Below are positions 48,694 through 63,620 of a stretch of 64,000 nucleotides of DNA, piece after piece. The notes below the pieces were generated by a model. The model did not search any database, was not told the origin of the DNA, and saw nothing but the letters and a program-made list of their open reading frames with translations. Origin of the DNA: Hansschlegelia quercus (GTDB lineage Bacteria; Pseudomonadota; Alphaproteobacteria; Rhizobiales; Methylopilaceae); the NCBI RefSeq assembly GCF_004310425.1, contig NZ_SIUB01000002.1, positions 434,001 to 498,000 of the forward strand, given 5' to 3'. Positions within the stretch are counted from its first letter, which is position 1, and each line of letters starts with the position of its first letter. The translations under genes and the position numbers were made by a program.

Positions 48694-49095
48694 TTAAGGT
48701 TCGAGGACAATCTGCGGTTGCCAGCGCCTGCGGTGCTGCCGAAGAAAGTTCCTCTGCTCACTGGATAGCTGACGACGCAAGCGTGAAGCCGACCCTAGGA
48801 GCTGCCCCGCCTCTGAAGAGATTTGATCGCTGATCAACGCAGCGCCATCGTCGTCGAAGCTGACCAATCCGGCATCGAAAGCGGCATCCCACAACGCCGA
48901 CAGAAGTAAGCCATTGTTGACGTTTAGGCGGTGAGCGTTGCTCACGCACTCGGACCAGGGCACAATGTGTGACGCCCTGAGCAGCGCGGGATCGCTGAGG
49001 CCAGTGACCGCGCAGCGCCCTTCCCAATACTGTAGGAGTGCTCGACGGAAGATGTCCTGGCCGACGCGCTGGCGGCGCAGATGCGAGTGAAGGAC
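48694..49095 (-). pseudogene. HNH endonuclease, 3' remnant
   Basis: This frame is open from 49095 (after a TAG at 49096-49098) to the stop at 48694. It reads GQDIFRRALLQYW, CAVTGL, LLRASHIVPWSECVSNA, NGLLLSALWDAAFDAGLV, the C-terminal HNH domain of a common nuclease family, with the His-Asn-rich core intact. The N-terminal half is missing. Upstream sequence changes to an unrelated gene start in another frame, so this is a truncated gene at a recombination joint. Confidence 0.82.
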
Positions 49096-49233: not shown

Positions 49234-52200
49234 TCAACGTCTGGTGTGACGTGCGCTAGGCGCGGCGTCTGCCGCTTTCTTTTGCGCTAGGCGGAATGGG
49301 CATAGGTCGAGCGTTAGCTCTTGGAGTACGGCAAGGAGCTCAGGCTCACTCTTGGCCAGTATCTCAAGCAGGTCCTCTTGGTTCGGCTGACCGAGCGCCA
49401 GCCGATAGAGGAAGCGCTGCTCTCGAAGCACCTTGTAGCGATGGACGTCGCGACCAAAGGGGCGCTCAAATACCTGCCGCGTCACCCGTGCCTCGGGTAG
49501 AATCCACCACGGGCTCAGTCCGCCCTTTTCAGCCAGTCGCGCCTCAGCGAGGCTGGAGAGGCGCCGCCAGGGTGATGCTGCGGCCGTGTGATCGGCGAAC
49601 ACATCCTCGTGCAACACCTTGCCTAGACGGCGGCGAATAGACAGGCCTCCATAGCGCTGGATTCTCCCCTCCCGCTGCTCCAGGTCGAGCGGGTTGGACG
49701 GCAAATCCCAATGGAGGACGCGGGAACACCAAGTATGGAAATCCAGCCCCTCCTGGCCGACCGAGGTAGTCGCCAGGACGTGAGGCCAGAATGGCGAGTT
49801 GAAGCTCTGGCGGATCTCGTCAGGTCGGACGGAGCCGAGATCTTCCTCAATTTCCAGCACGGGCGCGCCCGCTTTAGGGGGCGGGGCCGCCTCCGCGTCG
49901 CCAAATGGCATCGCGGCATGGCACCGAAGGCGCAAACGCTCTGAGTCGCCGAGCGCGTGGAAACTGAAGCCGCCTGTGATGAGGCGGAGCGACGATTGCA
50001 AGTCCTTCGCCAATGCCTCGACACCCTCTTGGGACGAGCTGCGAATCCAGAGGTGTTCGTCGAGCACGCTCTCCAGATTGCCTGCGAATGCCGCCGCCAA
50101 AAGACCTTCAACCGCGCTGGAGCCGCCGATCGCAGACAGAAGAACGGGATTGTCGAGATACGGACGCAAGCCCTGCCAACTTAGTCGAACTACGCATGGG
50201 TAGGTGTCGGGGTTGAGGGTATCGGCCGCGTGACGCCACAACGCCCGCCCAACGATGACCCCCGGCGCAGCGATAGCGTAGGTGACGAGATCCTCGAGTT
50301 CACGAGGCGAAATCCAGCTTACAGGCTCCGCCTCGCGCCATGCCTGGACGGAGGCTTTTGCCAATCGGTCATGACCGACAACGGCCGCCCACGCGTTGGC
50401 CGAGCGGTCAGCCAAACCGGCGTGTTTCTCGATTCCGGAGAGAACACGGCCGATTGATCGACGCCGCTTTCGTTTCGCCGCGCTCGAACGGACCACGTCT
50501 ATCTTCAGTGGGCGCAGAGCCTCTTTGATCTTCTTTCGCACCCAGCGGCGCAATCCAGCCCGAGATCGATCGGGTGCGGTCGCTGGATCGGTATTGCGGA
50601 TCAACCAGATTGAAGGATGGAAGGCGGCCATCACCGGGCCAGGCGGCCCCGAAAGTTTTATCTTCCGCCGAGCGTACGCCTTCTCATAACCGCCGCGCCG
50701 GTCGATCAAGTGCGCCTCGACGCCGAAGCTCAATAGGCTGGTGACGGCCGGCGGCGTCGCCTTAAACCGACTGAACATTAGAAGCTTCGTCTCTTGGCCT
50801 TGCTCAGCCCAGGCTCCGCTCAAATCCCACCACGGCAACGAAGGCGCGATCCACGGCAAAGCGAGCTTCTCGGGCGGCGTTGTCGCCGCTAGGGCTCTCA
50901 ACTTCGCATCTGGCCAAATCACAGGGGCCAGGTCGTCGCGCCGTCGCCGCGTCAGCGCCATCAGGCCGCGCGTCGGTTTGAAGATGCGATCACGCGTGAT
51001 CGCATAGCGTTGCCCCAGGGCCTGAGCCGGTAGCGGCACTGAGGACCAGTAAGCCAGCGTATCTGCCCTGCGGTTCGCATCGGTCGAGCGAACGAGGTGT
51101 CGATAGACCGCGACGTCAGCGACCTCTGAAGCGGCGGGAAGGCGAAGGAGATCCGGTTCAAGGTTGCCGTGACCCCGTGTGAAGCCGTCGCGTTCGGTCC
51201 GCCCAATGACCGGCGAGAGAAGCGCCTGAAGGTGATCGCGCAGAGCAGCCGCCTCCGCGGCAAGCGGCGCCCGCTCTGCGACCGGAGCCTGCACAAGGAG
51301 CCGCAGCGTATCGCCGAACGCTTTGAAGTGGGTTTGCGCCTCGACCCTAACCTTCCCTCCCGCCAGAAAATCGATCAGGCCGAAGAACTCACGGTGGGCC
51401 TGGATGCCTCGGCCCTCCTCCCACCGAGACGCGAACAGTTTGTAAGGCGTCGCCGACAATAGGAGGAGCGCCGGCGGCCTTTTACCATTGCCCTTCAGCA
51501 GCTGCGCCATCAGCGGATCAACAGGCGCTTCGCCTTTGATCAGATCGCGATACTTCTGGAACTCATCCAAAATGATGATGTCTGGCGGCTGGTGAACCAG
51601 ACAGGCCAGGCAAAGCGCCCTGCGCAGACGCCCGATAAATGCACGTTGGTTGAGCAGAGCCAGCTCAACAAGCCGGCCGGCGAAGGATGGCGCCGCTCCC
51701 GATGTCTTAAACTCTGCAAACTCGCGTTGGAGCGCGTCCCGATATCGGGCGACAAGACCCGGCGGCGCATCCGCCATCCGTTTGCGCGCGACCGCCAAGG
51801 CGCCGAGCCATCCTGATGTCGCTTGCAGCTGAAGGAAATTCGCCGGGAGCCTGGCGATCACAGACGGGTAAGCCTTCACGAGCAGCTGGGCGACAAAGGC
51901 GCGCTCAACCGCCTTCCCACCGCTCAGGCTTGCCCGGCTGGTACGCGGAAACGAAGTGTCGGGAGACAAGGCGTAGATGGCGACCGTCGCGTCCGGCGGC
52001 GTACTGACGGCAACCAGCGAAAGACGGTCCGGCGTACGAACCGCCTTCTTCAGCTCAGCTTTCTCGAGAAATTCCACTACCCGAGGCTTGTTCTGGTGGG
52101 AAACCGCTGAACCGCTGGCGATGTAGTAAACCACTAAGGGACGGCCCGCCTTTCGGCTCAAGGCCTCAACCACATCGCGTGCGACAACGGTTTTGCCCAA

Positions 52201-52305
52201 ACCGACCTCATCAGCCACGAGGTAGCGGCGGCTTCCGCCCTTGACAGCGAAGGCGGCAAGAGCGGCCTTTACGGTCGCCGTTTGAAACTCCCGGGCCAAC
52301 CTCAC
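49234..52305 (-). CDS. SNF2-like superfamily 2 helicase
   Basis: 1,023-residue protein with helicase motifs in order: Walker A DEVGLGKT (residues 32-39), motif II LDEFQ (246-250, a DEAH variant), motif III LLSATPYKL (283-290) and, near residue 890, motif VI QREGRIQRYGG. A 500-residue insert separates the two RecA-like lobes. The GTG start overlaps the stop of the PLD gene (GTGA). It is the last gene of the DUF6361/PLD/helicase operon. Such helicases are common in anti-phage systems; the function here is inferred from context. Confidence 0.88.
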   Translation of the reverse strand: MRLAREFQTATVKAALAAFAVKGGSRRYLVADEVGLGKTVVARDVVEALSRKAGRPLVVYYIASGSAVSHQNKPRVVEFLEKAELKKAVRTPDRLSLVAVSTPPDATVAIYALSPDTSFPRTSRASLSGGKAVERAFVAQLLVKAYPSVIARLPANFLQLQATSGWLGALAVARKRMADAPPGLVARYRDALQREFAEFKTSGAAPSFAGRLVELALLNQRAFIGRLRRALCLACLVHQPPDIIILDEFQKYRDLIKGEAPVDPLMAQLLKGNGKRPPALLLLSATPYKLFASRWEEGRGIQAHREFFGLIDFLAGGKVRVEAQTHFKAFGDTLRLLVQAPVAERAPLAAEAAALRDHLQALLSPVIGRTERDGFTRGHGNLEPDLLRLPAASEVADVAVYRHLVRSTDANRRADTLAYWSSVPLPAQALGQRYAITRDRIFKPTRGLMALTRRRRDDLAPVIWPDAKLRALAATTPPEKLALPWIAPSLPWWDLSGAWAEQGQETKLLMFSRFKATPPAVTSLLSFGVEAHLIDRRGGYEKAYARRKIKLSGPPGPVMAAFHPSIWLIRNTDPATAPDRSRAGLRRWVRKKIKEALRPLKIDVVRSSAAKRKRRRSIGRVLSGIEKHAGLADRSANAWAAVVGHDRLAKASVQAWREAEPVSWISPRELEDLVTYAIAAPGVIVGRALWRHAADTLNPDTYPCVVRLSWQGLRPYLDNPVLLSAIGGSSAVEGLLAAAFAGNLESVLDEHLWIRSSSQEGVEALAKDLQSSLRLITGGFSFHALGDSERLRLRCHAAMPFGDAEAAPPPKAGAPVLEIEEDLGSVRPDEIRQSFNSPFWPHVLATTSVGQEGLDFHTWCSRVLHWDLPSNPLDLEQREGRIQRYGGLSIRRRLGKVLHEDVFADHTAAASPWRRLSSLAEARLAEKGGLSPWWILPEARVTRQVFERPFGRDVHRYKVLREQRFLYRLALGQPNQEDLLEILAKSEPELLAVLQELTLDLCPFRLAQKKAADAAPSARHTRR

Positions 52306-54113
52306 GACGGCGCTCCCAATCCCTCTTCACAGACGGCCCACATCTGCGCGAACTGCTTGAGTTGTGTGTGACCGTTAGGGTCGGCCGTCCGCGTATGCTC
52401 CAGAAGCGCTGGCAAATAGGCGCTGATCCGGTATTGAACGGCTTTGTAGACGGCGGGCGACCGGGACCAGGTGCTGAATATTTCTTCCTGGGTCGGCAGG
52501 TCCGCCGTCCAGGTCGGTGTCGGCTCGCCAGTTGAGCTGCGGGATGGCTCGTCCTTCGTCCAATCTGGATCATTGGGCGAAGCGGCGGCGCCGCGCATGG
52601 TGTCAGCGATCCACAGCAAGAACTCGCGGGCTCCCATCGCACGCATAAAAGCTGCACGGTCCCGCTCAACGCCGAAGGGAGGCGTCGCCGGCGCCTGCAC
52701 GATCCACTCGCAGCTCGCGTCCCCTAACATCAGCCGTAGCTGGACGAGTTCGGTTAGGTCCGCTGTTTGAATAGGGCCGAGATCAAGCTCGGTTTGTCCG
52801 GCCGGCCACGTCTTAAGATCGCTGGTGATCAGCCCAGCCTCCAGGCGAATGCGGGCGTCTGACGGGTGGAGAATGGACGAATGGCGGAGTCGAATGCTTT
52901 CGGTGTCCCAAACGATCTCACCCTTCCAACGAGCGGAGACTTCGGCGCGCGCACGCTCGAGCTCGTCCTTTTCCGCCTCGACATCCTTCAGCACCGCCGC
53001 GTCTTCCCATCGGATGGGTCGAGCCTCTGCGATAAGGCTCATGAGGCCACCCTCGACCGCTTCGTCCACGGAAAGCTCAGCGATGATCTCGACGTTGCGT
53101 CCCGTCCAGGCGCGTTGCGTGGCGTTCGCACTGCCCGTCCAAAGACGCCGTTTATCGCCCTGGCGTATGTGCAGGAGTTTTGCATGCAGGCCTCGGCCGA
53201 GCTCTTCGCCCTCCTCGACCGCAGACGCGGGTGTTGGATCGACTGGATCCGGCGCCTCAAAGTTGGTCGGTGGATAGTCTGGAGCATCAAGCGCAAGAGA
53301 GTCTCCGAAGGGTCGACAGGTTGCGCCGAGCCTTTCGATTTCAAACCGCGTCGAAAGCAGTTGACGCTCGCCGCCGCGACACTCCGTCTTCGCCACGTGC
53401 CGGAGGAAGCCAGCGTCCAAGAAGGGGCTGACCACTGTGAGCGCGTCGACCGCCTTTGGCAGAGCCGGCAGGCTCCAATCGCCTTTGCCGGTGCTGATGC
53501 CGAGGCGGTCCACCCGGACGCCGGCTGGAGCCTTCCATTTGAGAGCCGCGATCTCTGCGGCTAGCCCTCGCGCTGATACGCCCGGCAGCCCGGCACGTTC
53601 GGCCAAGGCGGTAGCGATGTCGTCGACGCCCGGCACTCGGCGTCCCTGTCCGCCTGGACGTGCGACCAGTACAAGGCCGAGATCGCGGTTTTCCTGGGCT
53701 GTGAGATTGCGACTGCCAATCCACAAGCGCCACTCGATGGCCTTGTCTGTAGAGACCTTCACCAAAGCGGCTTTGGGATGCCAACTTTGGCGACGCTCGT
53801 CGAAGGCGACGTCACGTACAAACTGATCCAAGACGCCCGTCAGCCGAGGTGTTCGCGCCATTTTGGCGAGGCGGCCCCTCTGAATGACAACCCGGAACCT
53901 GTCCCGTGCAGCTTCGATCGCATCGGCGAGATCGCGACGAGCAGCGGGGCGATCTTCATCGTCGCGCCCAACCATGGCGAGCAAGGCCGCGACGATTGAA
54001 ATCGGATCTGCTGAATAGGCGGCGATGATCGCCAGGTCCGCCGTCCAACCTTGTTCGGGCCGCAGGGCGTCCAGATAACTGGTCACCCTCCAGGGCGCCG
54101 CCGCTCCGCTCAT
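52302..54113 (-). CDS. Phospholipase D-like protein with two HKD-type motifs
   Basis: 603-residue protein. Motif 1: His112-x-Lys114 in WHPKAALVKV followed by GSRNLTAQENRDLG; motif 2: His310-x-Lys312 in LHAKLLHI followed by GSANATQRAWTG. Both halves of the PLD active site are therefore present, though the Asp of the HKD motif is replaced by the Asn-rich GSxN form seen in PLD-like nucleases. The C-terminal 200 residues have no known domain. Start and stop overlap its neighbours by four bases each. The best guess is a DNA-directed nuclease working with the helicase. Confidence 0.85.
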   Translation of the reverse strand: MSGAAAPWRVTSYLDALRPEQGWTADLAIIAAYSADPISIVAALLAMVGRDDEDRPAARRDLADAIEAARDRFRVVIQRGRLAKMARTPRLTGVLDQFVRDVAFDERRQSWHPKAALVKVSTDKAIEWRLWIGSRNLTAQENRDLGLVLVARPGGQGRRVPGVDDIATALAERAGLPGVSARGLAAEIAALKWKAPAGVRVDRLGISTGKGDWSLPALPKAVDALTVVSPFLDAGFLRHVAKTECRGGERQLLSTRFEIERLGATCRPFGDSLALDAPDYPPTNFEAPDPVDPTPASAVEEGEELGRGLHAKLLHIRQGDKRRLWTGSANATQRAWTGRNVEIIAELSVDEAVEGGLMSLIAEARPIRWEDAAVLKDVEAEKDELERARAEVSARWKGEIVWDTESIRLRHSSILHPSDARIRLEAGLITSDLKTWPAGQTELDLGPIQTADLTELVQLRLMLGDASCEWIVQAPATPPFGVERDRAAFMRAMGAREFLLWIADTMRGAAASPNDPDWTKDEPSRSSTGEPTPTWTADLPTQEEIFSTWSRSPAVYKAVQYRISAYLPALLEHTRTADPNGHTQLKQFAQMWAVCEEGLGAPS

Positions 54114-55372
54114 GGTCGGGGCCCGCGAAGGTCAGAGAGCAGTCCGCTCACCGACCCCCAGCGATAATGGAGCGGGTAGCCAACGGGATGGTCGCTGGCG
54201 TCCCACTCGGCGCGTCGGGTTCTAGCGCTTGCGGTGTCGGGCAGTCGGGAGCGCAAGCCCTTGCGGCCCTCAGCCGCTTCGTAGGCGCCGACCAAAGCCG
54301 TCGGGTCAGTCGCCCCCTCATGGACCCAATCTAGCGTCTGGGCCAGCACGGTGCGGAGCCGCGGCGGTAAGTCGCCGATATCATCCTCAACCAGATGTAG
54401 ATTGGCGCTGTTCAGCTCAGACGCCGCGCGTGCGCCGTGCTCCCTGAGCAACCGCCCGAGTTGAGCGCGATGCAATCGCGGCGTCTCACGACCATCCAAC
54501 AGTTCGCGGCGATCCTCGACGAGGGCAGCGTAAACGCCCCTTCCGATCGCAGCGAGGGCAGCCACCGCGCGCGCTCTGCGGAGAGGCGCAGCATCCGGAC
54601 CGGCGAGTTTGATGATGGCCTTGTCCCACAGCGAAAGCGGCGGGTCGATCTCGTGGCGCGCCAACTGACTGAGAAGAGACAAGTGCCTCAGAGGCTCAGG
54701 CGCCGGTATGTGGCTCAACCGCTCGCGGAGAAACTCACGCTCATCGTCTCTCAGATTGAAGGATAGAGGCGTATCGGCCGACCAGTCCTTCGGGGGTTGA
54801 GGCAGGGCGACGAAGAGAGCCTCGACCTCGATGAGCGGGCGGCCCTCGTCATCCATCGTCGGACGTGATGCGGAGAGGCGGGTGTGAACGGTTCCACGGT
54901 TAGGAACACGATTTCGTCCGTCACGCCGCAAGATTCCCCAGGCGTCCAAGGCTGACCAATAGGTGCTGGAAGGCGGCTGATCCGCCAGTTGAGGCCAGGT
55001 AAGACCGCCGATTACACCCTGTTCCCCACGATCCTTCAGCCGTTTCGCCAGCCCGATCTCAGCCCGCTTCAGCGCGTCCTGGGCGTTCGCTGAAGATTTT
55101 CCAGATTGATCCAGAAACTGCCACGGTACGAAAAGCGCATATCGCAAGCGGGTGTGCAGCACCGAGGTGCCTGGAAAGAAGCGGTTCGCGTAGCGTTGGT
55201 GCAGAAGTAGAAGTCCTACCTCATCGCGAACGCCCTGACCTTTTTCGTTCAGCTGCGCACGGGCCCGGGCTAGAGCCTTGGGCGTAAGACTTACCCAACC
55301 GAATGCTGGCTCCAACCCCCTGCCCTCCCCCGGAGCGGTACCGCGATCGAGTCGCACACTGGATCCGGACAA
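54110..55372 (-). CDS. DUF6361 family protein
   Basis: 420-residue protein matching DUF6361: AFGWVSLTPKALARA near the N-terminus and GTSVLHTRLRYALFVPWQFLD around residues 68-90, both diagnostic. The rest is helical with no catalytic motif that I recognise. The frame starts at TTG 55372; an internal TTG at 55315, preceded by a purine-rich stretch and directly before the conserved part, may be the real start. It is the first gene of the operon with PLD and helicase. Confidence 0.82.
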   Translation of the reverse strand: MSGSSVRLDRGTAPGEGRGLEPAFGWVSLTPKALARARAQLNEKGQGVRDEVGLLLLHQRYANRFFPGTSVLHTRLRYALFVPWQFLDQSGKSSANAQDALKRAEIGLAKRLKDRGEQGVIGGLTWPQLADQPPSSTYWSALDAWGILRRDGRNRVPNRGTVHTRLSASRPTMDDEGRPLIEVEALFVALPQPPKDWSADTPLSFNLRDDEREFLRERLSHIPAPEPLRHLSLLSQLARHEIDPPLSLWDKAIIKLAGPDAAPLRRARAVAALAAIGRGVYAALVEDRRELLDGRETPRLHRAQLGRLLREHGARAASELNSANLHLVEDDIGDLPPRLRTVLAQTLDWVHEGATDPTALVGAYEAAEGRKGLRSRLPDTASARTRRAEWDASDHPVGYPLHYRWGSVSGLLSDLRGPRP

Positions 55373-56055: not shown

Positions 56056-57159
56056 TCACGGTCGTGCGGCAAAGAGTTGAGGGAAGCCAACTGCGTCCGC
56101 ACGAACGATGCATTGGCTGACCGCGTAATCCGCTCCCAGACGCTCTGCTTCGGCGCGGGCCGACGCCTCATCGCGGAACAATCCTGCGATGTCGTCCCCG
56201 CTATGAATGCACGGAGCGAGCCGCGCCAGCGGATCGTCCGGGTGAAGGGTCGGCGCATAGGCGCTGAGATGCTGGTGCAAAGGCTCGATCCATGTCGCGA
56301 CCCCGGTACCGAGCTCGCCGCCGTTCGCCGCGGCAATCGACCGGCTCACCACGCCGACGACCTCGCCACGCAGGTTCAACACCGGCCCGCCGCTCATGCC
56401 TCCGGGCCAATCCGCTTGGACCTCAAAGATTGGCGTTCCGCGCACGCCGCCCCGCCCTTCGAGATACAGCGCGACGACCTCACCGTAGGCGGCTTTCATC
56501 CGGGCCCCCACCACGACGGCTTCGGCGCGGTCGCCCTCGAAGGCGCTGATCTCGGGAAACCCGATCGCAAGCACGGTTTCACCAGGCCTCGGGCCGACCG
56601 GAGATCGGCGGAGGGGCAGACACTCCAAGCGCCGTTCAGCATGGATGCGCGCCTCCATCATGACGAGATCCAGAGGCCTGACGTCGGGCTCTCCGCGCAG
56701 CGCCGCAAGAGGATCGTCACCGGGAAGCCCCAGCCACGCATACCGAGTGATCGGTGCCAAACCGCCCTCTGGGACTCTTGGTCGGCCGAACACCAGCCCT
56801 ACTCCCAAAAGCACGCGGAAGCCACGATCCGCCGGCGCCTCCATCGTGTAGCGAGGCGCGCCGGCCGGGCCGGCTTCGACTGCGGCGGCCGCCAGCGGCA
56901 CCCATCGCTCCATCTCGGCGAACACATGGTGCGCGCTCATGAGAGCACCCCAGGGGTCGAGCGCGAAGGCTGTGCCCAGCCCGGTCAGTCGACCGTCCTC
57001 ACCCTGTCGGAAGACCGGAAAAACGGCCCAGCGAGCTCCCATCGGATCTTCATAGTCAAACAGCGCCGACGTCTGCCCGTTCTCAGGCAGCGCCGGGAGA
57101 CCGGCCTCTCCCCGGGCGATGGCCTCGCAGGTCCGGACCGTGATTGGCTTGAGGGGCAT
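56056..57159 (-). CDS. Trypsin-like serine protease
   Basis: 367-residue protease with a chymotrypsin-fold triad: His in LMSAHHVF (residues 77/78), Asp164 in RPLDLVMME, and Ser256 in WPGGMSGGPV. No signal peptide is present, so it is likely cytosolic, which is unusual for DegP-like enzymes and typical of conflict-system proteases. About 80 residues after the protease domain (SGDDIAGLFRDEASARAEA) form a small unknown tail. The ATG at 57159 is chosen because AAAGGA lies eight bases before it; ATGs 3 and 10 codons upstream are possible. Confidence 0.82.
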   Translation of the reverse strand: MPLKPITVRTCEAIARGEAGLPALPENGQTSALFDYEDPMGARWAVFPVFRQGEDGRLTGLGTAFALDPWGALMSAHHVFAEMERWVPLAAAAVEAGPAGAPRYTMEAPADRGFRVLLGVGLVFGRPRVPEGGLAPITRYAWLGLPGDDPLAALRGEPDVRPLDLVMMEARIHAERRLECLPLRRSPVGPRPGETVLAIGFPEISAFEGDRAEAVVVGARMKAAYGEVVALYLEGRGGVRGTPIFEVQADWPGGMSGGPVLNLRGEVVGVVSRSIAAANGGELGTGVATWIEPLHQHLSAYAPTLHPDDPLARLAPCIHSGDDIAGLFRDEASARAEAERLGADYAVSQCIVRADAVGFPQLFAARP

Positions 57160-57569
57160 CAGTCGCATCCTTTCGTTAGACGCGGCCATGGCAATCTCGC
57201 CGGGTCAGCGCCGGCGTACATGACATGGCTCGGCCGCCAAGAGAGGCTCGTCAGCGGTTGTCGGGTAACGTTGTAGGCCGCGAGCGTGGTCCCGATCATT
57301 GCGGGAGGATGTCCTAAAAGGGCCGCAGTCGCGTTATTGCGATGCCTCGTGAGCAACAAGCTCCCGCTGATCGTCGATCTATGTACGGATGTGGGAGCGA
57401 AACGCTCAAATCGAGGCCCGCTTTTTCCGGCGATTTTACAACGATCGCTGCTTGGAAAGGGTAGTCCCGCATCGCGATTAGCGGGTGGTTGATCATTAAA
57501 GGCGAGTGCAGCGAGCGCTACCGATCGAGCTCCCACCGTCCCAGGGCGAAAGGGTGATCCGTGAAGCGA
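57160..57569. other. Gene-free spacer
   Basis: About 410 bases without a credible gene on either strand. It probably holds the promoter of the protease gene. No repeat, hairpin with T-run or mobile-element end was recognised. Confidence 0.4.
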
Positions 57570-58211
57570 CTATGTCGGAGGAGGTCCTTTGGGCATCTCC
57601 CACGGTCGACCGGTTTTCGCCTCAAGTCGCGCTCGAACCTTTTCCATTCGATCCGCCATCAGCTCGTCGATGAACTTGACAAGCTCTAGCCATTCCCGCG
57701 GGCCACCGACGTGGAAGCCGAGTGCGAGGCCAAGCTTGATCTCGAAGCGGCCGTCTCCGAACCCAATTTCTAACGCGTCAGAGACGCTGTGATGTCCGGC
57801 ATTGTGCGCGAAGCGCTTGTTGCGAAGATCGATGATGTCGTCATGAATCGGTCGAAGCCGTTCTGGGAGGGCGCCGCGTCCGAAGCCGCTTCCCCCGCCG
57901 CCCTGGTGTAGGCGTGCATAGGTGACGACAAAGGCCGTCGTCAGCATATCCAGCTCGAGAATAGCCTCCATTGTGGGTGCGAACCGATATAGCGTAAGGC
58001 GACTCTGAATATGCTTCAGTGTCACTAAGGTACCTAGCGAACGTGTAAGCCGCGAGAGGCTGGACAACTCATTGTCTACTGACCTCAGGACTGCACGACC
58101 GTCATCGACGATCTCCTGCATCTGATCACGCCAGTGCTGCGGTAGGAACTCAAGCGCCTCTTCAGGGAGAACAACGTATTCGTGACCATCCTCAAAGGGC
58201 TGATCCAACAT
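57570..58211 (-). CDS. Hypothetical HEPN-like helical protein
   Basis: 213-residue helical protein. The segment DDIIDLRNKRFAHNAGHH contains Arg130-x5-His136, resembling the R-x(4-6)-H motif of HEPN RNases, in a setting (LRN...H) typical of that fold. The C-terminal half ends in basic helices. The ATG at MLDQPFEDGHEYVVL is preferred; the frame runs 21 codons further. A HEPN assignment is tentative; a structural model would settle it. Confidence 0.5.
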   Translation of the reverse strand: MLDQPFEDGHEYVVLPEEALEFLPQHWRDQMQEIVDDGRAVLRSVDNELSSLSRLTRSLGTLVTLKHIQSRLTLYRFAPTMEAILELDMLTTAFVVTYARLHQGGGGSGFGRGALPERLRPIHDDIIDLRNKRFAHNAGHHSVSDALEIGFGDGRFEIKLGLALGFHVGGPREWLELVKFIDELMADRMEKVRARLEAKTGRPWEMPKGPPPT

Positions 58212-58773
58212 CCACCTCTCCCGACCTTGCTGCGCCCCCAAGACGGATAAGCCCCTAACTCTCATAGCGACCATCTGTGGTGGTCAAGATGATTGATGTT
58301 TGGATTGCGGGCATTGTTTGGAGGTCCGGGAGCAGACGTTCAGCGTTGGATGAAAAGCGAAAAGCGGATTGCCGCCCAAAAGTAAACGTTCCTGACGTCT
58401 GTCATGGGATCAAGTGCAGACGCGCTGGCTGCCGGCTCAGTGCCCGCTTGTAGGGTGTGAGCGAAAGTCTGGTCTGGCGCGGAACCGAATGTCAGCTTCT
58501 GGCGCAAAACGGCGGCGAGGCTCCTTCGCGTGCTGACCCATAGTTGACGTTCGAGGTGCCCGCTTTGCGCCAAATTAGAGCGACCGCATCTCCAGCGTTG
58601 CCGGCCCCTGACGCGACACCTCCTTTTTCTTTCTGTGGAACCGCTACCCCGGCGAGGTTGCGGCGGCCGTCCGTGATCTGGTCCGACAGGAAGCCTAGGT
58701 TTCGAATTCTGGTGCGCCGACGTCTCCTAGACCAATATACCCCTCATTCCAGCGGCCAGAACATCGAGGTCAA
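58212..58773. other. Gene-free spacer, probably decayed sequence
   Basis: 562 bases between the HEPN-like gene and the GTPase operon. Frames on both strands are short and out of character with neighbouring codon use. Base composition is lower in GC than the flanks. No recognisable transposase, tRNA or repeat was found. Confidence 0.4.
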
Positions 58774-60768
58774 TCAGTTGCTATGCACGGCTTTGCTTAG
58801 CCGGTGCCCGCCGGGAACATCATCTGCAGCTTTCCGGAGCAATTTTAGCTCCTTGCCGTCACTTAGGAGCCTACCGAAACTTGATGTATCGAGGTCATGG
58901 CGTACGTATGCTATCGATACAGCCAGACGTAATTTGAGGGCTTTGTCCCAATTTTTGAATATGCTGATATCAGGCAAGACCGGATTTAGAATTCGCTCGG
59001 CTCGCCAAGAAAGGTACGAGTCCATCATTCTGTGATGTAGGTAGGTAAACGACCGTTCAAAAATCTGCGGCGCATATTGGCCGCCGACGATCGTCGCCAG
59101 GGCAAACAGAAAGGCCTCGAGTTCGTCTCTCTCGTATGTATCGAGGTCTTCCTGGACGTTTCTGATGGCAGCAGCCCAGGGGTCAAGGCCCGCCTTTACT
59201 ACTTCCTCGCTGAGCCACCCCATCGCATCAGCAAGCGTCGACAGGATTGAGGTTCTGTCGATCCTTCGGAAGACCTTTGCGTCGAGGACACGGGATGGAG
59301 CAGCCGCCAGGGCAGATAGCCAGACCTCGGACGACTGCGCCCCGAAAAGGTTCGCCTTCTCGATCGCTTGGCCAAGAACGGGCACCGAAAATTTCTCGAC
59401 GGCTTTCTTTACGACCGCATCTGAAATGGGAGAAGGCAACCGCCGGACTAGCGCCCCCCCGACCCTGTGACCTTCCGGGATAGCATCGAGAAGCACTAGG
59501 AGGCTTTCTGTTTCGAGCCCTGCGATATGCTCGGAATCCAGCACGTCTGGATGGTTCGCCGCCAACCGGCGACGCATTTCGGGGAAACCTACTGTCACGT
59601 CCCAGAAGTCGGCTTCCGGCACCACCTGCGCTACTGTCGTGAGCAACGCGTCGGCCAGCCTCCCCGGGTGCGTGGCCGCCCATTCCGCAAGGCGCATCAT
59701 GTCGGTAGACCGCGCAGGCCAGGACCGCGCGACTCTAGCCAGCCCATCATCGGATGGTTGCGGAAGGCTGCGCCCTCGATCGATTTCGCAGAGATAGAGG
59801 AGGGCGTCTACCTGGCTTTCGGCAAAGAGAGCGCCGTTGATCAGATCGCTCTTGAGCGTCGAGGCGTCCTTGATCTCTGGGAACGCGTTCGTAACAGAGG
59901 CAAGGATGTATGTGCTCGGCGTCCGTTTGGTCTCCTTCGAGGCAATGAACAGCTGAACGAGTGGGCGGAACGATCCGCGCTGGCGTTTTACGTCCTGTCC
60001 GTATCGCCAGAGAAATGTCCGCAACTCGTGGGAGGAACTGGGCATGACGTCGTCTGCTGCTGCGACCAGCCATGGCTCTGTCTTCGGGGCAGGAGCGTTT
60101 GGTTTGTCATCGGAGCATCGGACGCTAGTCAACGTAAGGTCGAAGGACGAGCTAGTGCTGTCTGTTCCGGTCGACGCGGCGGTCTGGAACCGAAAGTTTC
60201 GCCGGAGCCGCGGCCACTGCTGCGACCAGAGCTCAAGTATCAGCCGATCAACTTCGCCGGGTCTGGCGACCTCGACGGAACGGTGGACGCCGCCGTAGAG
60301 GACCTCAAGCAGCTCGATCGTTCTGTTGCGGTCGAATTCGATTGTTGTGTCCGACCATGGACGATTGTCACCGGGACGGGAATGCAGCTCGATCCGACGA
60401 GCATATCGGGCGTGGGCGTCTCGGGATCCGGGCTTGCGGATCAGCGCCTCGAAGCAGGACAGATCGCTTACCTGCTCGAGCAGCGAGGGCTCGAGCAGAA
60501 GCAGGTGGGTCCAGACGCATCCAGGCCGGGGCATTTCGGGAGCTGGCCAAGTGTGCATCAGGCCGTAGCGCGACAGCGTTGGGATGGGGAATCCGGTCCA
60601 GTAGCCAACGGACGCGCTTGCGAAACGCGTCCCTGGCGCGAGATCGCTCGCAGCCGTCAGGTCCGAGGCCAGATCCGCCGGCAGCCTGATTGATGACGCC
60701 AGAAGCCGATGGCCGTCCGAATATCCGAACAGGCACTGGTCGATTTTGATAACGGCTTCGTCAGCCAT
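58774..60768 (-). CDS. GAP1-type GTPase-associated protein
   Basis: 664-residue protein. Its N-terminus (QCLFGYSDGHRLLASS, then YWTGFPIPTLSRYGLMHTW) matches the GAP1-N domain described in predicted NTP-dependent conflict systems. The remaining 450 residues are helical, with no known enzyme motif. Its start overlaps the DO-GTPase1 gene by eight bases. In related loci GAP1 proteins always accompany two small GTPases, as here; they are thought to be adaptors or effectors. Confidence 0.82.
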   Translation of the reverse strand: MADEAVIKIDQCLFGYSDGHRLLASSIRLPADLASDLTAASDLAPGTRFASASVGYWTGFPIPTLSRYGLMHTWPAPEMPRPGCVWTHLLLLEPSLLEQVSDLSCFEALIRKPGSRDAHARYARRIELHSRPGDNRPWSDTTIEFDRNRTIELLEVLYGGVHRSVEVARPGEVDRLILELWSQQWPRLRRNFRFQTAASTGTDSTSSSFDLTLTSVRCSDDKPNAPAPKTEPWLVAAADDVMPSSSHELRTFLWRYGQDVKRQRGSFRPLVQLFIASKETKRTPSTYILASVTNAFPEIKDASTLKSDLINGALFAESQVDALLYLCEIDRGRSLPQPSDDGLARVARSWPARSTDMMRLAEWAATHPGRLADALLTTVAQVVPEADFWDVTVGFPEMRRRLAANHPDVLDSEHIAGLETESLLVLLDAIPEGHRVGGALVRRLPSPISDAVVKKAVEKFSVPVLGQAIEKANLFGAQSSEVWLSALAAAPSRVLDAKVFRRIDRTSILSTLADAMGWLSEEVVKAGLDPWAAAIRNVQEDLDTYERDELEAFLFALATIVGGQYAPQIFERSFTYLHHRMMDSYLSWRAERILNPVLPDISIFKNWDKALKLRLAVSIAYVRHDLDTSSFGRLLSDGKELKLLRKAADDVPGGHRLSKAVHSN

Positions 60769-61651
60769 CGGTCATGAGCCAGAGCAGCGGAACAGTGATG
60801 TCGTGGCCGGGTTCGCCAACGTCGACGATCATGATCCTTTCACTGGGGTTTTTCTTCGCAGCTTCACGCACCGCCGCTTCGTCCTTGAAGTCGACGCCCT
60901 GCGCTGAGACCCCGTATAAGCGGCTGTCGAAGAAGTCCCGGTTCGTGCGCAGGAACTGATCCACAAGGGGCATCTCGCCGGCAATCCACTGAGCAGGCGT
61001 GCGACCCGACGGAACGATTAGATCCCAGGCAGAAATGACGAGAGCCAGTCGTCGCCGTCTGACTTCGAACGGCGCTCGCAGCAGGTCGCTTAGGATTTGC
61101 ACGATCCGAACGGAGCCGGGCGTCTCCTTGGGCTCCCAGACAAGCTCTTCCTCCTCATCATCGTCCGACCAGCTCTCCTGGGCTGTCTTGTCTTCTGGAT
61201 CACTGTCTGTGGCCGGTGGCTCGGGCGGCAGCTGGGCGTTGAGCTCAAGGATCGAGAGGAAGTCTTGTTTGGAGTTGGCGTTAATGAACAGCATGACGCC
61301 ATCGCATTCAGCAACGTTGTCGACGAAGATGCGGCGGCTCCTTCGCGCCTCGACCTGGTCTGAAAACCTCTCGCCTGCGACGTCCGGAAAGAAAGCCGCG
61401 GCTTGGGTGCCGGAGCTGTCGTCGACGAGATGCATCACCACGTCCGTGTCGCCTGTCTGGGACGTCCGCTCGACCGGCTGAAAAGTGCGCCAAGCCTCGG
61501 AGATCTTGTTTAGATAGGTCTGGTCACCTTCGAACCGTTCGAGCCTCAACAGGCAAGGTTTTTCGTTGGCCTCGACGATATGCCAGAGCGCGGCAAGGAA
61601 CGTAGTCTTGCCGGAGCCGGGCAACCCTATGATGACGAAGTTGGAATTCAT
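60761..61651 (-). CDS. Small GTPase, DO-GTPase1-like
   Basis: 296-residue P-loop GTPase: Walker A GLPGSGKTT (residues 9-17), switch-II-like PDVAGE (89-94), and SAWD in the base-recognition position. An acidic insertion (SDDDEEEEL) near residue 165 is unusual. It overlaps both neighbours (four bases with DO-GTPase2, eight with GAP1). It is one of two GTPases in the operon, the hallmark of double-GTPase conflict systems. Confidence 0.82.
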   Translation of the reverse strand: MNSNFVIIGLPGSGKTTFLAALWHIVEANEKPCLLRLERFEGDQTYLNKISEAWRTFQPVERTSQTGDTDVVMHLVDDSSGTQAAAFFPDVAGERFSDQVEARRSRRIFVDNVAECDGVMLFINANSKQDFLSILELNAQLPPEPPATDSDPEDKTAQESWSDDDEEEELVWEPKETPGSVRIVQILSDLLRAPFEVRRRRLALVISAWDLIVPSGRTPAQWIAGEMPLVDQFLRTNRDFFDSRLYGVSAQGVDFKDEAAVREAAKKNPSERIMIVDVGEPGHDITVPLLWLMTDG

Positions 61652-62574
61652 GCTCGTCGTTTCCGTAACAGGAAGCGATCAAACTCGTCGTCAAGCTTCA
61701 ACTCTGGAATTGGGGCCCCCGGCGGATCGGGAGGGGTCAACCAGCTACGGAGCATTGCGTCCATGCCGTATGCCGGGGCCGTCTGTCCCGAGGGATCTCT
61801 CGCAGCTGTGCGCCAGCTGGTCACCTTGGCGAAGCGGCCGGCATAGAGGTCTTTTGTCCGCTGCTCGAATGTCTCGATCGCTGTTATGGCGTGAGTGAGG
61901 GAGGCCGCCTGCAGCAGGTCGATCTTGGTGGTCACCAATTGAACTTCGACATGCTCGGGAACTGCGTCCGCGTCGGCGGCCGCCCGAATGAGCTGGCGAG
62001 CCGAAGTCAGTGTCTCTTCTCGTCTTAAATCGTCAGCTAGACGAGCTCCGTCTAGAACGAAGACGAGCGTCCTGGCCTTTACGATCTCCAAAAAGCCTTC
62101 AACCTTTGCCGTGTTGTCGCGGATAGCTCGATAGCTTTCACCTGCGCGCTCGGTGATCAGAAGGTCGACGCGGTCTTGCCCGCTGTCGGTTGCTAAGCCG
62201 AGATGAAAGAAACGCAGCCCTTCGCGGACTGAGGTCCGCTCGGTGTCCGGGATGGGCGCGCCCGTGATCATGCGCGCGAAATAGCATCGCCTTTCAAAGC
62301 CGGCGAGCGTCCTGCTTCCAGCAAAGTGCAGTCCCGCAAACGGCCCGCGAAGAAAGCGTTCGTAAATCTCCGTCACGAGCGTGGTCTTGCCAGCCCACCG
62401 CTCTCCGATCACCGCCACGACATTCGCGGCCCGCCAACGCATCAGAGCGTCGGCGTCCTCGATCGTCAGTAGATCCGCGTGCGGAAGCCAGAGCCGCTCT
62501 GTGTCGGTTGGAGAGGTCTCTTCTGGTTTGGCCTGGTCGAATACGTCAAGATCGGTGTCTTTCTCCTCGATCAT
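61648..62574 (-). CDS. Small GTPase, DO-GTPase2-like
   Basis: 308-residue GTPase with Walker A GERWAGKTT (residues 57-65) and TERAGE (141-146) in place of the usual DxxG(E) switch II. The base-recognition motif TTKID is at 215-219. The N-terminal 40 residues are acidic and probably disordered. The changed switch II suggests altered hydrolysis. It overlaps its neighbours by four bases on each side. Confidence 0.82.
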   Translation of the reverse strand: MIEEKDTDLDVFDQAKPEETSPTDTERLWLPHADLLTIEDADALMRWRAANVVAVIGERWAGKTTLVTEIYERFLRGPFAGLHFAGSRTLAGFERRCYFARMITGAPIPDTERTSVREGLRFFHLGLATDSGQDRVDLLITERAGESYRAIRDNTAKVEGFLEIVKARTLVFVLDGARLADDLRREETLTSARQLIRAAADADAVPEHVEVQLVTTKIDLLQAASLTHAITAIETFEQRTKDLYAGRFAKVTSWRTAARDPSGQTAPAYGMDAMLRSWLTPPDPPGAPIPELKLDDEFDRFLLRKRRA

Positions 62575-63620
62575 AGTGCGGACTCGAGCAACTGCTCGTA
62601 GAAGACCTGTTCGGCGAGTTCGCTCGCCTTGAACTCCATATGGGCGTCGAGACCCGTTGCAGACTCAAACGCCTGCACCCAGCCACCCCCACCGATCTCT
62701 CGAGCTTTGTTCAGCGCGGTCAGGACGGGACAGATCCCAGGGCGCAGCGGCATTTCGAGACTGAGCGTGTCAAGATCAGCGCTAAGGCCGTCGACGGCCA
62801 AAGCAAGTGAGATCGATTTGCTGTCCTTCTTCGCGCTCCGAAGTACTCGCTCAAGCACTGCCGGCGCCGCCACCGGACCAAGATACGACGTCGTGCACAG
62901 CTCACCGAGCTCGATGCCGCCGAGCAGGGCAGCCTGCGCAGGGCGAAGGCTGTCGAACGGCTTTCCCGATGAGCGGCTGTGTTCTCCAAACAGCCACCAC
63001 AAAATCTGCGATTCTTCGCGAAGATAATTGAAGTTCGCATTGAGCGCGCTGACCGCGTCCGTCACCTGCTTCGCGACGACCCTATCAGATTCCTGACTCT
63101 CTCCGCGGGTTTTTGAAAGGGCGGCAACCACTTGCGGAATGTCAGCGGCTACTTCGATCGTCTCGGCGAGCTTTGGGGTCGCGCTATGCTTAATCGGCGT
63201 GACGATGGATTGCGGGATCCTGTTCGTAACCGCTCGTTGCTTCAACGCTAATCGAGCTTCGTCGACAAGCCCGACAGCTTCCGTCGGCGACCTTTTGCCC
63301 TGAACCGATCCCGCGACTAGCCCAAGGATCGAGACGGCATCGCCCGCGGCGACGCTCGCTCCCAGTATCGCGGCCGCTACGATTATCGCCTCGCGCTCTC
63401 CTGTGACGAGGGAGAACGTCAAATCCTCCTTGCGAAGCTCGTCACGGAACCATGTAAGATCGGGCCTCAAGCCGTAATACGCGCCTACCAAATCAAGCTT
63501 TTGTTCGTCCGTCGCGTCTTCTTGGACGCGCGTGGCCGACAATTCGCGAAGGTTGATAATCTCGGCAGTGGGCTGGAGGCCGCCAAGCGCGTACCGGTCG
63601 GCGAAATCAATGCTGCTCAT
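62571..63620 (-). CDS. GASH-like all-helical GTPase-associated protein
   Basis: 349-residue, mostly helical protein resembling the GTPase-associated system helical (GASH) family. Features are an N-terminal SIDFADRYALGGLQPTAEII, the segment ILWWLFGEHSRSSGKPF, and SYLGPVAAPAVLERVL. It has no enzyme motif. It is encoded immediately before the GTPases with four-base overlaps on both sides. A hydrophobic Gly/Ala-rich stretch near residue 80 could be membrane-associated, but this is weak. Confidence 0.75.
   Translation of the reverse strand: MSSIDFADRYALGGLQPTAEIINLRELSATRVQEDATDEQKLDLVGAYYGLRPDLTWFRDELRKEDLTFSLVTGEREAIIVAAAILGASVAAGDAVSILGLVAGSVQGKRSPTEAVGLVDEARLALKQRAVTNRIPQSIVTPIKHSATPKLAETIEVAADIPQVVAALSKTRGESQESDRVVAKQVTDAVSALNANFNYLREESQILWWLFGEHSRSSGKPFDSLRPAQAALLGGIELGELCTTSYLGPVAAPAVLERVLRSAKKDSKSISLALAVDGLSADLDTLSLEMPLRPGICPVLTALNKAREIGGGGWVQAFESATGLDAHMEFKASELAEQVFYEQLLESAL

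What the first reader, a model, noticed from the sequence alone, without database searches (positions are those of the whole stretch)
49234..55372. DUF6361 / PLD-like / SNF2-like helicase operon
Three genes overlap by four bases each (ATGA, GTGA). A helicase with a two-HKD PLD-like protein recalls DISARM (drmD/drmC), but the methylase, drmA and drmB are missing and the first gene is DUF6361. I cannot assign it to a named defence system. The tight coupling implies a stoichiometric complex.
Basis: partly seen in the sequence, partly recalled or inferred. Interest (0 to 1): 0.66.

Follow-up and report, generated by a model that had tools for sequence, protein, structure and literature searches.

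The report
Azaca anti-phage operon (zacA-zacB-zacC)
The three overlapping genes are an intact copy of Azaca, a bacterial anti-phage system that already has a name; the locus is ordinary, although how Azaca works still seems to be unknown.

Summary
In detail: three intact minus-strand genes (420, 603, 1023 aa), each overlapping the next by four bases, encode a DUF6361 protein, a two-HKD PLD protein and an SF2 helicase. The claim that they fit no named system is wrong: they are Azaca. PADLOC's ZacA, ZacB and ZacC models match end to end (E 1.3e-77, 1.5e-105, 1.6e-251). DISARM is excluded: one DrmA and one DrmB model find nothing in the genome; DrmC and DrmD scores are far below cut-off.

DUF6361 is a faithful marker of the trio. 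Of 80 relatives kept from 574, 75 match all three genes, all in order (61 over 85% or more of each protein); of the other five, four run out of contig and one is a truncated zacA.

I saw no mechanism in the listings and passages of held papers. My inference (about 50%): ZacC is an ATP-driven translocase that licenses the ZacB PLD nuclease, as in CglI/NgoAVII or SauUSI, with helical ZacA as sensor or adaptor. A double-GTPase/GAP1-N1 conflict system lies beside it.

The parts
54110..55372 (-). zacA: DUF6361 protein, 420 aa, predicted mostly helical; proposed sensor/adaptor
   Evidence: PADLOC ZacA E 1.3e-77, profile 3-391/396; PF19888 E 7.3e-18; model mean pLDDT 84.9
54110..54113 (-). ATGA overlap of zacA stop and zacB start
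   Evidence: ORF coordinates and start codon
52302..54113 (-). zacB: PLD-superfamily protein with two HKD-type motifs, 603 aa; proposed nuclease
   Evidence: PADLOC ZacB E 1.5e-105, profile 8-581/586; PLD/Tdp1/PLD3-4 fold over about residues 5-385, Z 18-20; both motifs invariant in 48 sequences
52302..52305 (-). GTGA overlap of zacB stop and zacC start
   Evidence: ORF coordinates and start codon
49234..52305 (-). zacC: superfamily 2 helicase/ATPase, 1023 aa; proposed DNA translocase
   Evidence: PADLOC ZacC E 1.6e-251, profile 13-1017/1019; Walker A, DEF, SAT and QREGRIQR motifs

Best explanation
This is an intact Azaca anti-phage operon, zacA-zacB-zacC (identity about 97% sure). Mechanism (about 50%, inferred): ZacC is an SF2 ATPase that binds and moves along DNA; ZacB is a PLD-fold phosphodiesterase that cuts nucleic acid once ZacC is engaged; ZacA is a helical adaptor or sensor that limits activation to infected cells. 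With no methyltransferase seen beside the trio, self would be spared by sensing rather than by modification: either a phage DNA structure or modification releases the nuclease, or the nuclease is unleashed on all DNA and the cell stops growing. Shown: gene content, order, catalytic motifs, co-inheritance and the predicted ZacB fold class. Inferred: the complex, the substrate, the trigger and the outcome.
For: PADLOC ZacA/B/C full-length hits in order. Of 80 kept relatives, 75 match all three genes, 75 of 75 in the order A-B-C, and 61 over at least 85% of each window protein. The trio is in 8 of 8 plasmid loci opened out of 42 matching records. Distance matrices correlate at r 0.974 (A-B), 0.972 (A-C) and 0.986 (B-C); the highest of 500 permutations per pair was 0.171 (68 trios). 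ZacB's model matches PLD enzymes, Tdp1 and the PLD3/4 exonucleases and, weakly, SauUSI (E 9.7e-4) and R.NgoAVII (E 1.3e-3). Catalytic motif residues are invariant or nearly so. CglI/NgoAVII and SauUSI couple a helicase-like ATPase to a separate or fused nuclease (abstracts of PMC4267653, PMC5737866, PMC7913695). Recurrent neighbour clusters in the 80 loci, named by one scanned representative each, include a type I methyltransferase (4 loci), AbiEii (4), PDC-S01 (6), ArdcN-UvrD-PD-(D/E)XK (19), RepB proteins (11 and 9) and a serine recombinase (10).
Against: No activity of this copy was tested. ZacB's fold also matches lipid-acting PLDs and phosphatidylserine synthase equally well (Z 18-20, nearly tied), so a nucleic acid substrate is not shown. 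Its DrmC and PLDc_2 sequence scores are below curated cut-offs. The genome was not searched for a stand-alone methyltransferase. Nothing shows what ZacA does.
Confidence: 0.6

Rival explanations
1. Hachiman-like genome-integrity sensing: the helicase ZacC holds the nuclease in check on intact DNA and releases it when damaged or single-stranded phage DNA is met, so that all DNA is degraded and the infected cell dies.
For: Hachiman HamAB is a sensor helicase plus effector nuclease (start of the abstract of PMC12278908 as shown in the search listings; that study names ZacC among the defence helicases chosen for its phylogeny, passage). No methylase was seen beside this trio.
Against: HamA is not a PLD protein (recalled) and Azaca has a third protein. 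I saw no growth-arrest data.
Confidence: 0.3
2. A DISARM variant that has lost its methylase, DrmA and DrmB and kept drmC/drmD analogues.
For: Local DrmD-like helicase motif (NF038317, 63.6 bits, residues 829-886). One close relative, L027 (89% identical ZacA), has DrmA- and DrmB-type proteins directly upstream of zacABC.
Against: Scores far below cut-offs (DrmD 63.6 of 610; DrmC 14.8 of 133). No DrmA or DrmB in this genome with the one model of each that was tried. A phmmer search with the L027 DrmA/DrmB proteins over the called ORFs of the 80 loci hit only L027 (genes beyond the 8-kb flanks or contig ends would be missed). DUF6361 is not a DISARM part (recalled).
Confidence: 0.03
3. ZacB acts on phospholipid or on a protein-DNA adduct rather than cutting phage DNA, so the system damages membranes or processes covalently capped genome ends.
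For: The best structural matches include phospholipases, phosphatidylserine synthase and Tdp1.
Against: A helicase partner in strict co-inheritance makes a nucleic acid substrate more likely; PLD3/4 nucleases score nearly the same.
Confidence: 0.1

Closest known systems
Azaca (zacABC; Millman et al. 2022, attribution and DOI recalled; paper not held)
   Same: All three protein families, end to end, and the gene order
   Different: This ZacA is a divergent member: 260 bits to the PADLOC model against 397-454 for nine other full-length ZacA found; about 24% mean identity to the L024-L026 branch, 31-89% within its own
CglI / NgoAVII ATP-dependent restriction systems
   Same: Separate nuclease and DEAD-family helicase-like ATPase (abstracts); R.NgoAVII is a weak fold match of ZacB (E 1.3e-3); that its nuclease is of PLD type is recalled
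   Different: They carry a DNA methyltransferase and a recognition site (abstracts); no methylase seen beside this trio; no DUF6361 protein (recalled)
SauUSI (fused helicase and nuclease)
   Same: Helicase-like ATPase plus nuclease domain and translocation (abstract); weak fold match of ZacB (E 9.7e-4); that it works without a partner methylase is recalled
   Different: One fused protein that recognises a methylated target (section heading); here three proteins and an unknown target
DISARM
   Same: A PLD protein and an SNF2-like helicase (drmC, drmD)
   Different: No DrmA or DrmB in the genome with the models tried, DrmC and DrmD scores far under cut-offs, DUF6361 instead
Hachiman (hamAB)
   Same: Helicase plus effector nuclease (abstract in listings)
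   Different: Different nuclease (recalled) and two components instead of three

Membership tests
Azaca | ZacA (DUF6361) present, full length | tested here: met
   PADLOC ZacA E 1.3e-77, 3-391/396; PF19888
Azaca | ZacB (PLD) present, full length | tested here: met
   PADLOC ZacB E 1.5e-105, 8-581/586
Azaca | ZacC (helicase) present, full length | tested here: met
   PADLOC ZacC E 1.6e-251, 13-1017/1019
Azaca | One operon in the order A-B-C | tested here: met
   same order in 8 of 8 plasmid loci opened and in 75 of the 75 genome relatives that match all three genes
Azaca | Protects against phage | not testable with these tools
   Needs a plaque assay
DISARM | DrmA helicase | tested here: not met
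   PDLC02575 finds nothing in the own genome; the same search rings in 7 of 14 control genomes. Only one of several DrmA models was used
DISARM | DrmB (DUF1998) | tested here: not met
   PDLC02583 finds nothing in the own genome; rings in 2 of 14 controls. Only one of several DrmB models was used
DISARM | DrmC PLD protein | tested here: not met
   NF038319 14.8 bits against a cut-off of 133
DISARM | Methylase DrmMI or DrmMII | tested here: inconclusive
   No methylase among the neighbouring genes scanned; the whole genome was not searched for it
CglI/NgoAVII | Cognate DNA methyltransferase | tested here: inconclusive
   None among the neighbouring genes scanned; genome not searched
CglI/NgoAVII | Nuclease homologous to R.NgoAVII | tested here: inconclusive
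   Foldseek E 1.3e-3, TM 0.17 by query length

The most novel reading that the evidence does not exclude
This copy belongs to a deep second branch of Azaca, and DUF6361 (ZacA) is a new kind of helical infection sensor that switches on a helicase-driven PLD nuclease without any self-marking methylase. If so, Azaca would be a sensor-gated ATP-dependent restriction system of its own kind.
Probability: 0.2. Interest if true: 0.45.

Novelty: already known. Interest (0 to 1): 0.15.

Why it matters
What remains open, as far as the literature seen here goes, is how Azaca works. The invariant residues listed here (ZacB H112/K114/H310/K312; ZacC K38, D247/E248; ZacA F66-P67-G68 and R75) and the confident ZacA and ZacB models give direct targets for that work.

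Tried and rejected
DISARM was rejected. A ZacA scan of viral contigs found no relative. A ZacA fusion in L059 first looked like a new architecture. It is a zacA cut off near residue 380 and run into a histone-deacetylase/nitroreductase frame in a metagenome assembly, most likely a deletion or misassembly.

ZacA fold: Foldseek gave nothing better than E 1.5; VIA-align's best was FokI, Z 3.5, rmsd 6.1 over 164 residues, which is noise level for a helical model; a ZacA profile found no solved structure at E <= 1. This does not show that the fold is new. The C-terminal third of ZacB (about 386-603) was barely covered by the fold search and stays unassigned.

Flank genes as island markers led nowhere. 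Of 13 genomes of the genus, the DUF4153-like gene is matched only in the own genome; the phosphoesterase and a distal gene that I take for glyoxalase-like (impression, no family scan) each match one other genome, at 34% and 37% identity. So no empty site could be read.

Full report
What is there. Three ORFs lie on the minus strand at 54110-55372, 52302-54113 and 49234-52305, with four-base overlaps ATGA and GTGA. All are intact. Pfam gives DUF6361 for the first, a PLDc_2 match just under cut-off for the second and Helicase_C for the third.

What it is. The PADLOC models ZacA, ZacB and ZacC match the three proteins over almost their whole length: 3-391 of 396, 8-581 of 586 and 13-1017 of 1019, with E 1.3e-77, 1.5e-105 and 1.6e-251. 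ZacA and ZacB are the only PADLOC families hit by their proteins at E 0.001. The other 22 families hit by the helicase score at most 63.2 bits, against 836.1 for ZacC. The locus is therefore Azaca. In the passages I saw, Azaca is a listed defence system of unknown mechanism (PMC10482375; PMC12926258), with a PLD-like domain (table in PMC10952713) and a helicase ZacC (methods passage of PMC12278908); it is reported in a Pseudomonas genomic-island defence hotspot (passages of PMC12629846) and was sought in E. coli genomes (passage of PMC10121019). Searches for Azaca and for ZacA/ZacB/ZacC listed no title or abstract start on its mechanism; I opened passages of six of the 28 papers that hold the word, several of the others being unrelated uses of it. 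DUF6361 appears in no held paper. The founding paper, looked up by a recalled DOI, is not held.

Co-occurrence. A scan of the genome collection with a ZacA alignment found 574 relatives and kept the best 80. Of these 80, 75 match both zacB and zacC downstream, all 75 in the order A-B-C on one strand. In 61 of the 75 each protein aligns over at least 85% of the window's; of the other 14, eleven have a zacC that stops at or within 106 bases of the contig end, and three (L051 zacC, L053 zacB, L091 zacB) have a short match inside the contig. Of the remaining five loci, three have zacB but the contig ends within 1,862 bases of zacA; in one it ends 21 bases after zacA; and L059 has a truncated zacA and neither partner. 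The best 80 lean towards the window's own branch. From the other branch I opened three plasmid loci (L024-L026), and all carry the trio. In total 8 of the 42 matching plasmid records were opened, and all 8 have zacA-zacB-zacC in order. Four-base overlaps are called for 62 of 75 A-B and 63 of 75 B-C junctions, with the bias that starts nearest that position were chosen. Across 68 trios (the window, 6 of the 8 plasmid loci and 61 of the 80 genome loci; 19 genome loci and plasmid loci L022 and L023 were left out), pairwise distances correlate at 0.974 (A-B), 0.972 (A-C) and 0.986 (B-C); the largest of 500 permutations per pair was 0.171. Permutation ignores shared ancestry of the hosts, so this shows joint inheritance, not contact.

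Distribution. ZacA is sparse: 2 of 101 relatives, 7 of 398 genomes drawn from the phylum, of which two are short partial matches, and 8 of 385 from the class, of which one is partial; the own genome is counted each time. In one search one other genome of the same genus has it, and that copy is of the other branch (450.7 bits to the model against 260; 24% identity). This fits horizontal transfer. In relatives the recurrent neighbours include RepB/ParB proteins, serine recombinases, a type I methyltransferase, AbiEii, PDC-S01 and an ArdcN-UvrD-PD-(D/E)XK protein. Those clusters rest on greedy ORF calls and single-linkage BLAST, and only one representative of each was scanned. Close relatives may share neighbours by descent.

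Anatomy. In 48 ZacB sequences, the window's included, both HxK...S.N motifs are invariant. AlphaFold2 gives a confident ZacB model (mean pLDDT 87.6, pTM 0.88). About its first 385 residues match PLD enzymes, Tdp1 and the PLD3/4 exonucleases at Z 18-20 (for instance 7e0m_B Z 19.7, rmsd 3.7, 284 aligned); Foldseek ranks Tdp1 first (E 1.1e-5) and lists SauUSI and R.NgoAVII weakly. In 29 ZacC sequences the ATPase motif residues are largely invariant; its profile matches RapA in the PDB (E 3.9e-7, best stretch only positions 23-48). ZacA is modelled as mostly helical (mean pLDDT 84.9, pTM 0.81; residues 1-48 under 50). Its invariant residues include D50-E51, FPGTSV (66-71), R75, Y78, P83, E368, K371, R387 and R404-W405 (57 sequences).

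Mechanism. The nearest tested analogues are CglI/NgoAVII, where a helicase-like ATPase and a separate nuclease cut DNA only with heavy ATP use (abstracts), and SauUSI, where both sit in one chain (abstract). Azaca has the same two engines, no methylase among the genes scanned nearby, and adds ZacA. I therefore infer a sensor-gated ATP-driven nuclease (about 50%). A Hachiman-like damage sensor that unleashes general degradation is the main rival (about 30%). Neither complex formation nor substrate is shown here.

DISARM. One DrmA model and one DrmB model find nothing in the genome, and the DrmD and DrmC similarities are far below NCBIfam cut-offs. A close relative, L027, does have DrmA- and DrmB-type proteins directly upstream of zacABC; a search of the called ORFs found no others in the 80 loci.

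Verdict. Interest is low; the open part is the mechanism, and the models and invariant residues above are the useful product.

Noticed in passing
58774-63620 (-), continuing beyond the window to L017:14476: A GAP1-N1 type double-GTPase conflict system as described in PMC7159879 (passages): GAP1-N1 (58774-60768), DO-GTPase1 (60761-61651), DO-GTPase2 (61648-62574), GASH (62571-63620), then outside the window a 1205-aa protein with GAAD, a bDLD2-trypsin, a trypsin and a trypsin/Endonuclease_NS/subtilase protein. The GAP1-N1, two GTPase, GASH, GAAD and bDLD2-trypsin proteins match no PADLOC v2 family at E 0.001; the last two proteins match nacht, RT-Protease, subtilase or PDC-M35A models at E 1e-5 to 1e-14.
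   Followed up: partly
56056-57189 (-): A trypsin-like protease gene (Trypsin_2, E 1.5e-12) between Azaca and the GAP1-N1 gene, probably an effector of the GTPase system.
   Followed up: partly
57570-58274 (-): A 234-aa protein with no family above cut-off; only a sub-threshold HEPN_AbiU2 resemblance (E 0.064).
   Followed up: no
48694-48963 (-): A short 89-aa ORF downstream of zacC that looks like the C-terminal end of an HNH-type nuclease (impression from recall, not tested).
   Followed up: no
L027:324-7362: DrmA (E 1.5e-257) and DrmB (E 6.1e-79, profile 9-602/606) directly upstream of zacABC in a close relative, preceded by an RmrA-like regulator and a 169-aa ORF without a PADLOC match: DISARM core next to Azaca.
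   Followed up: partly
L078:790-4317 and 18 further loci of the 80: An ArdcN-UvrD-helicase-PD-(D/E)XK protein recurs near Azaca in 19 of 80 loci, and a PD-(D/E)XK protein in 11 of 80 (one representative of each scanned): a possible recurrent partner system, or shared descent of islands.
   Followed up: partly
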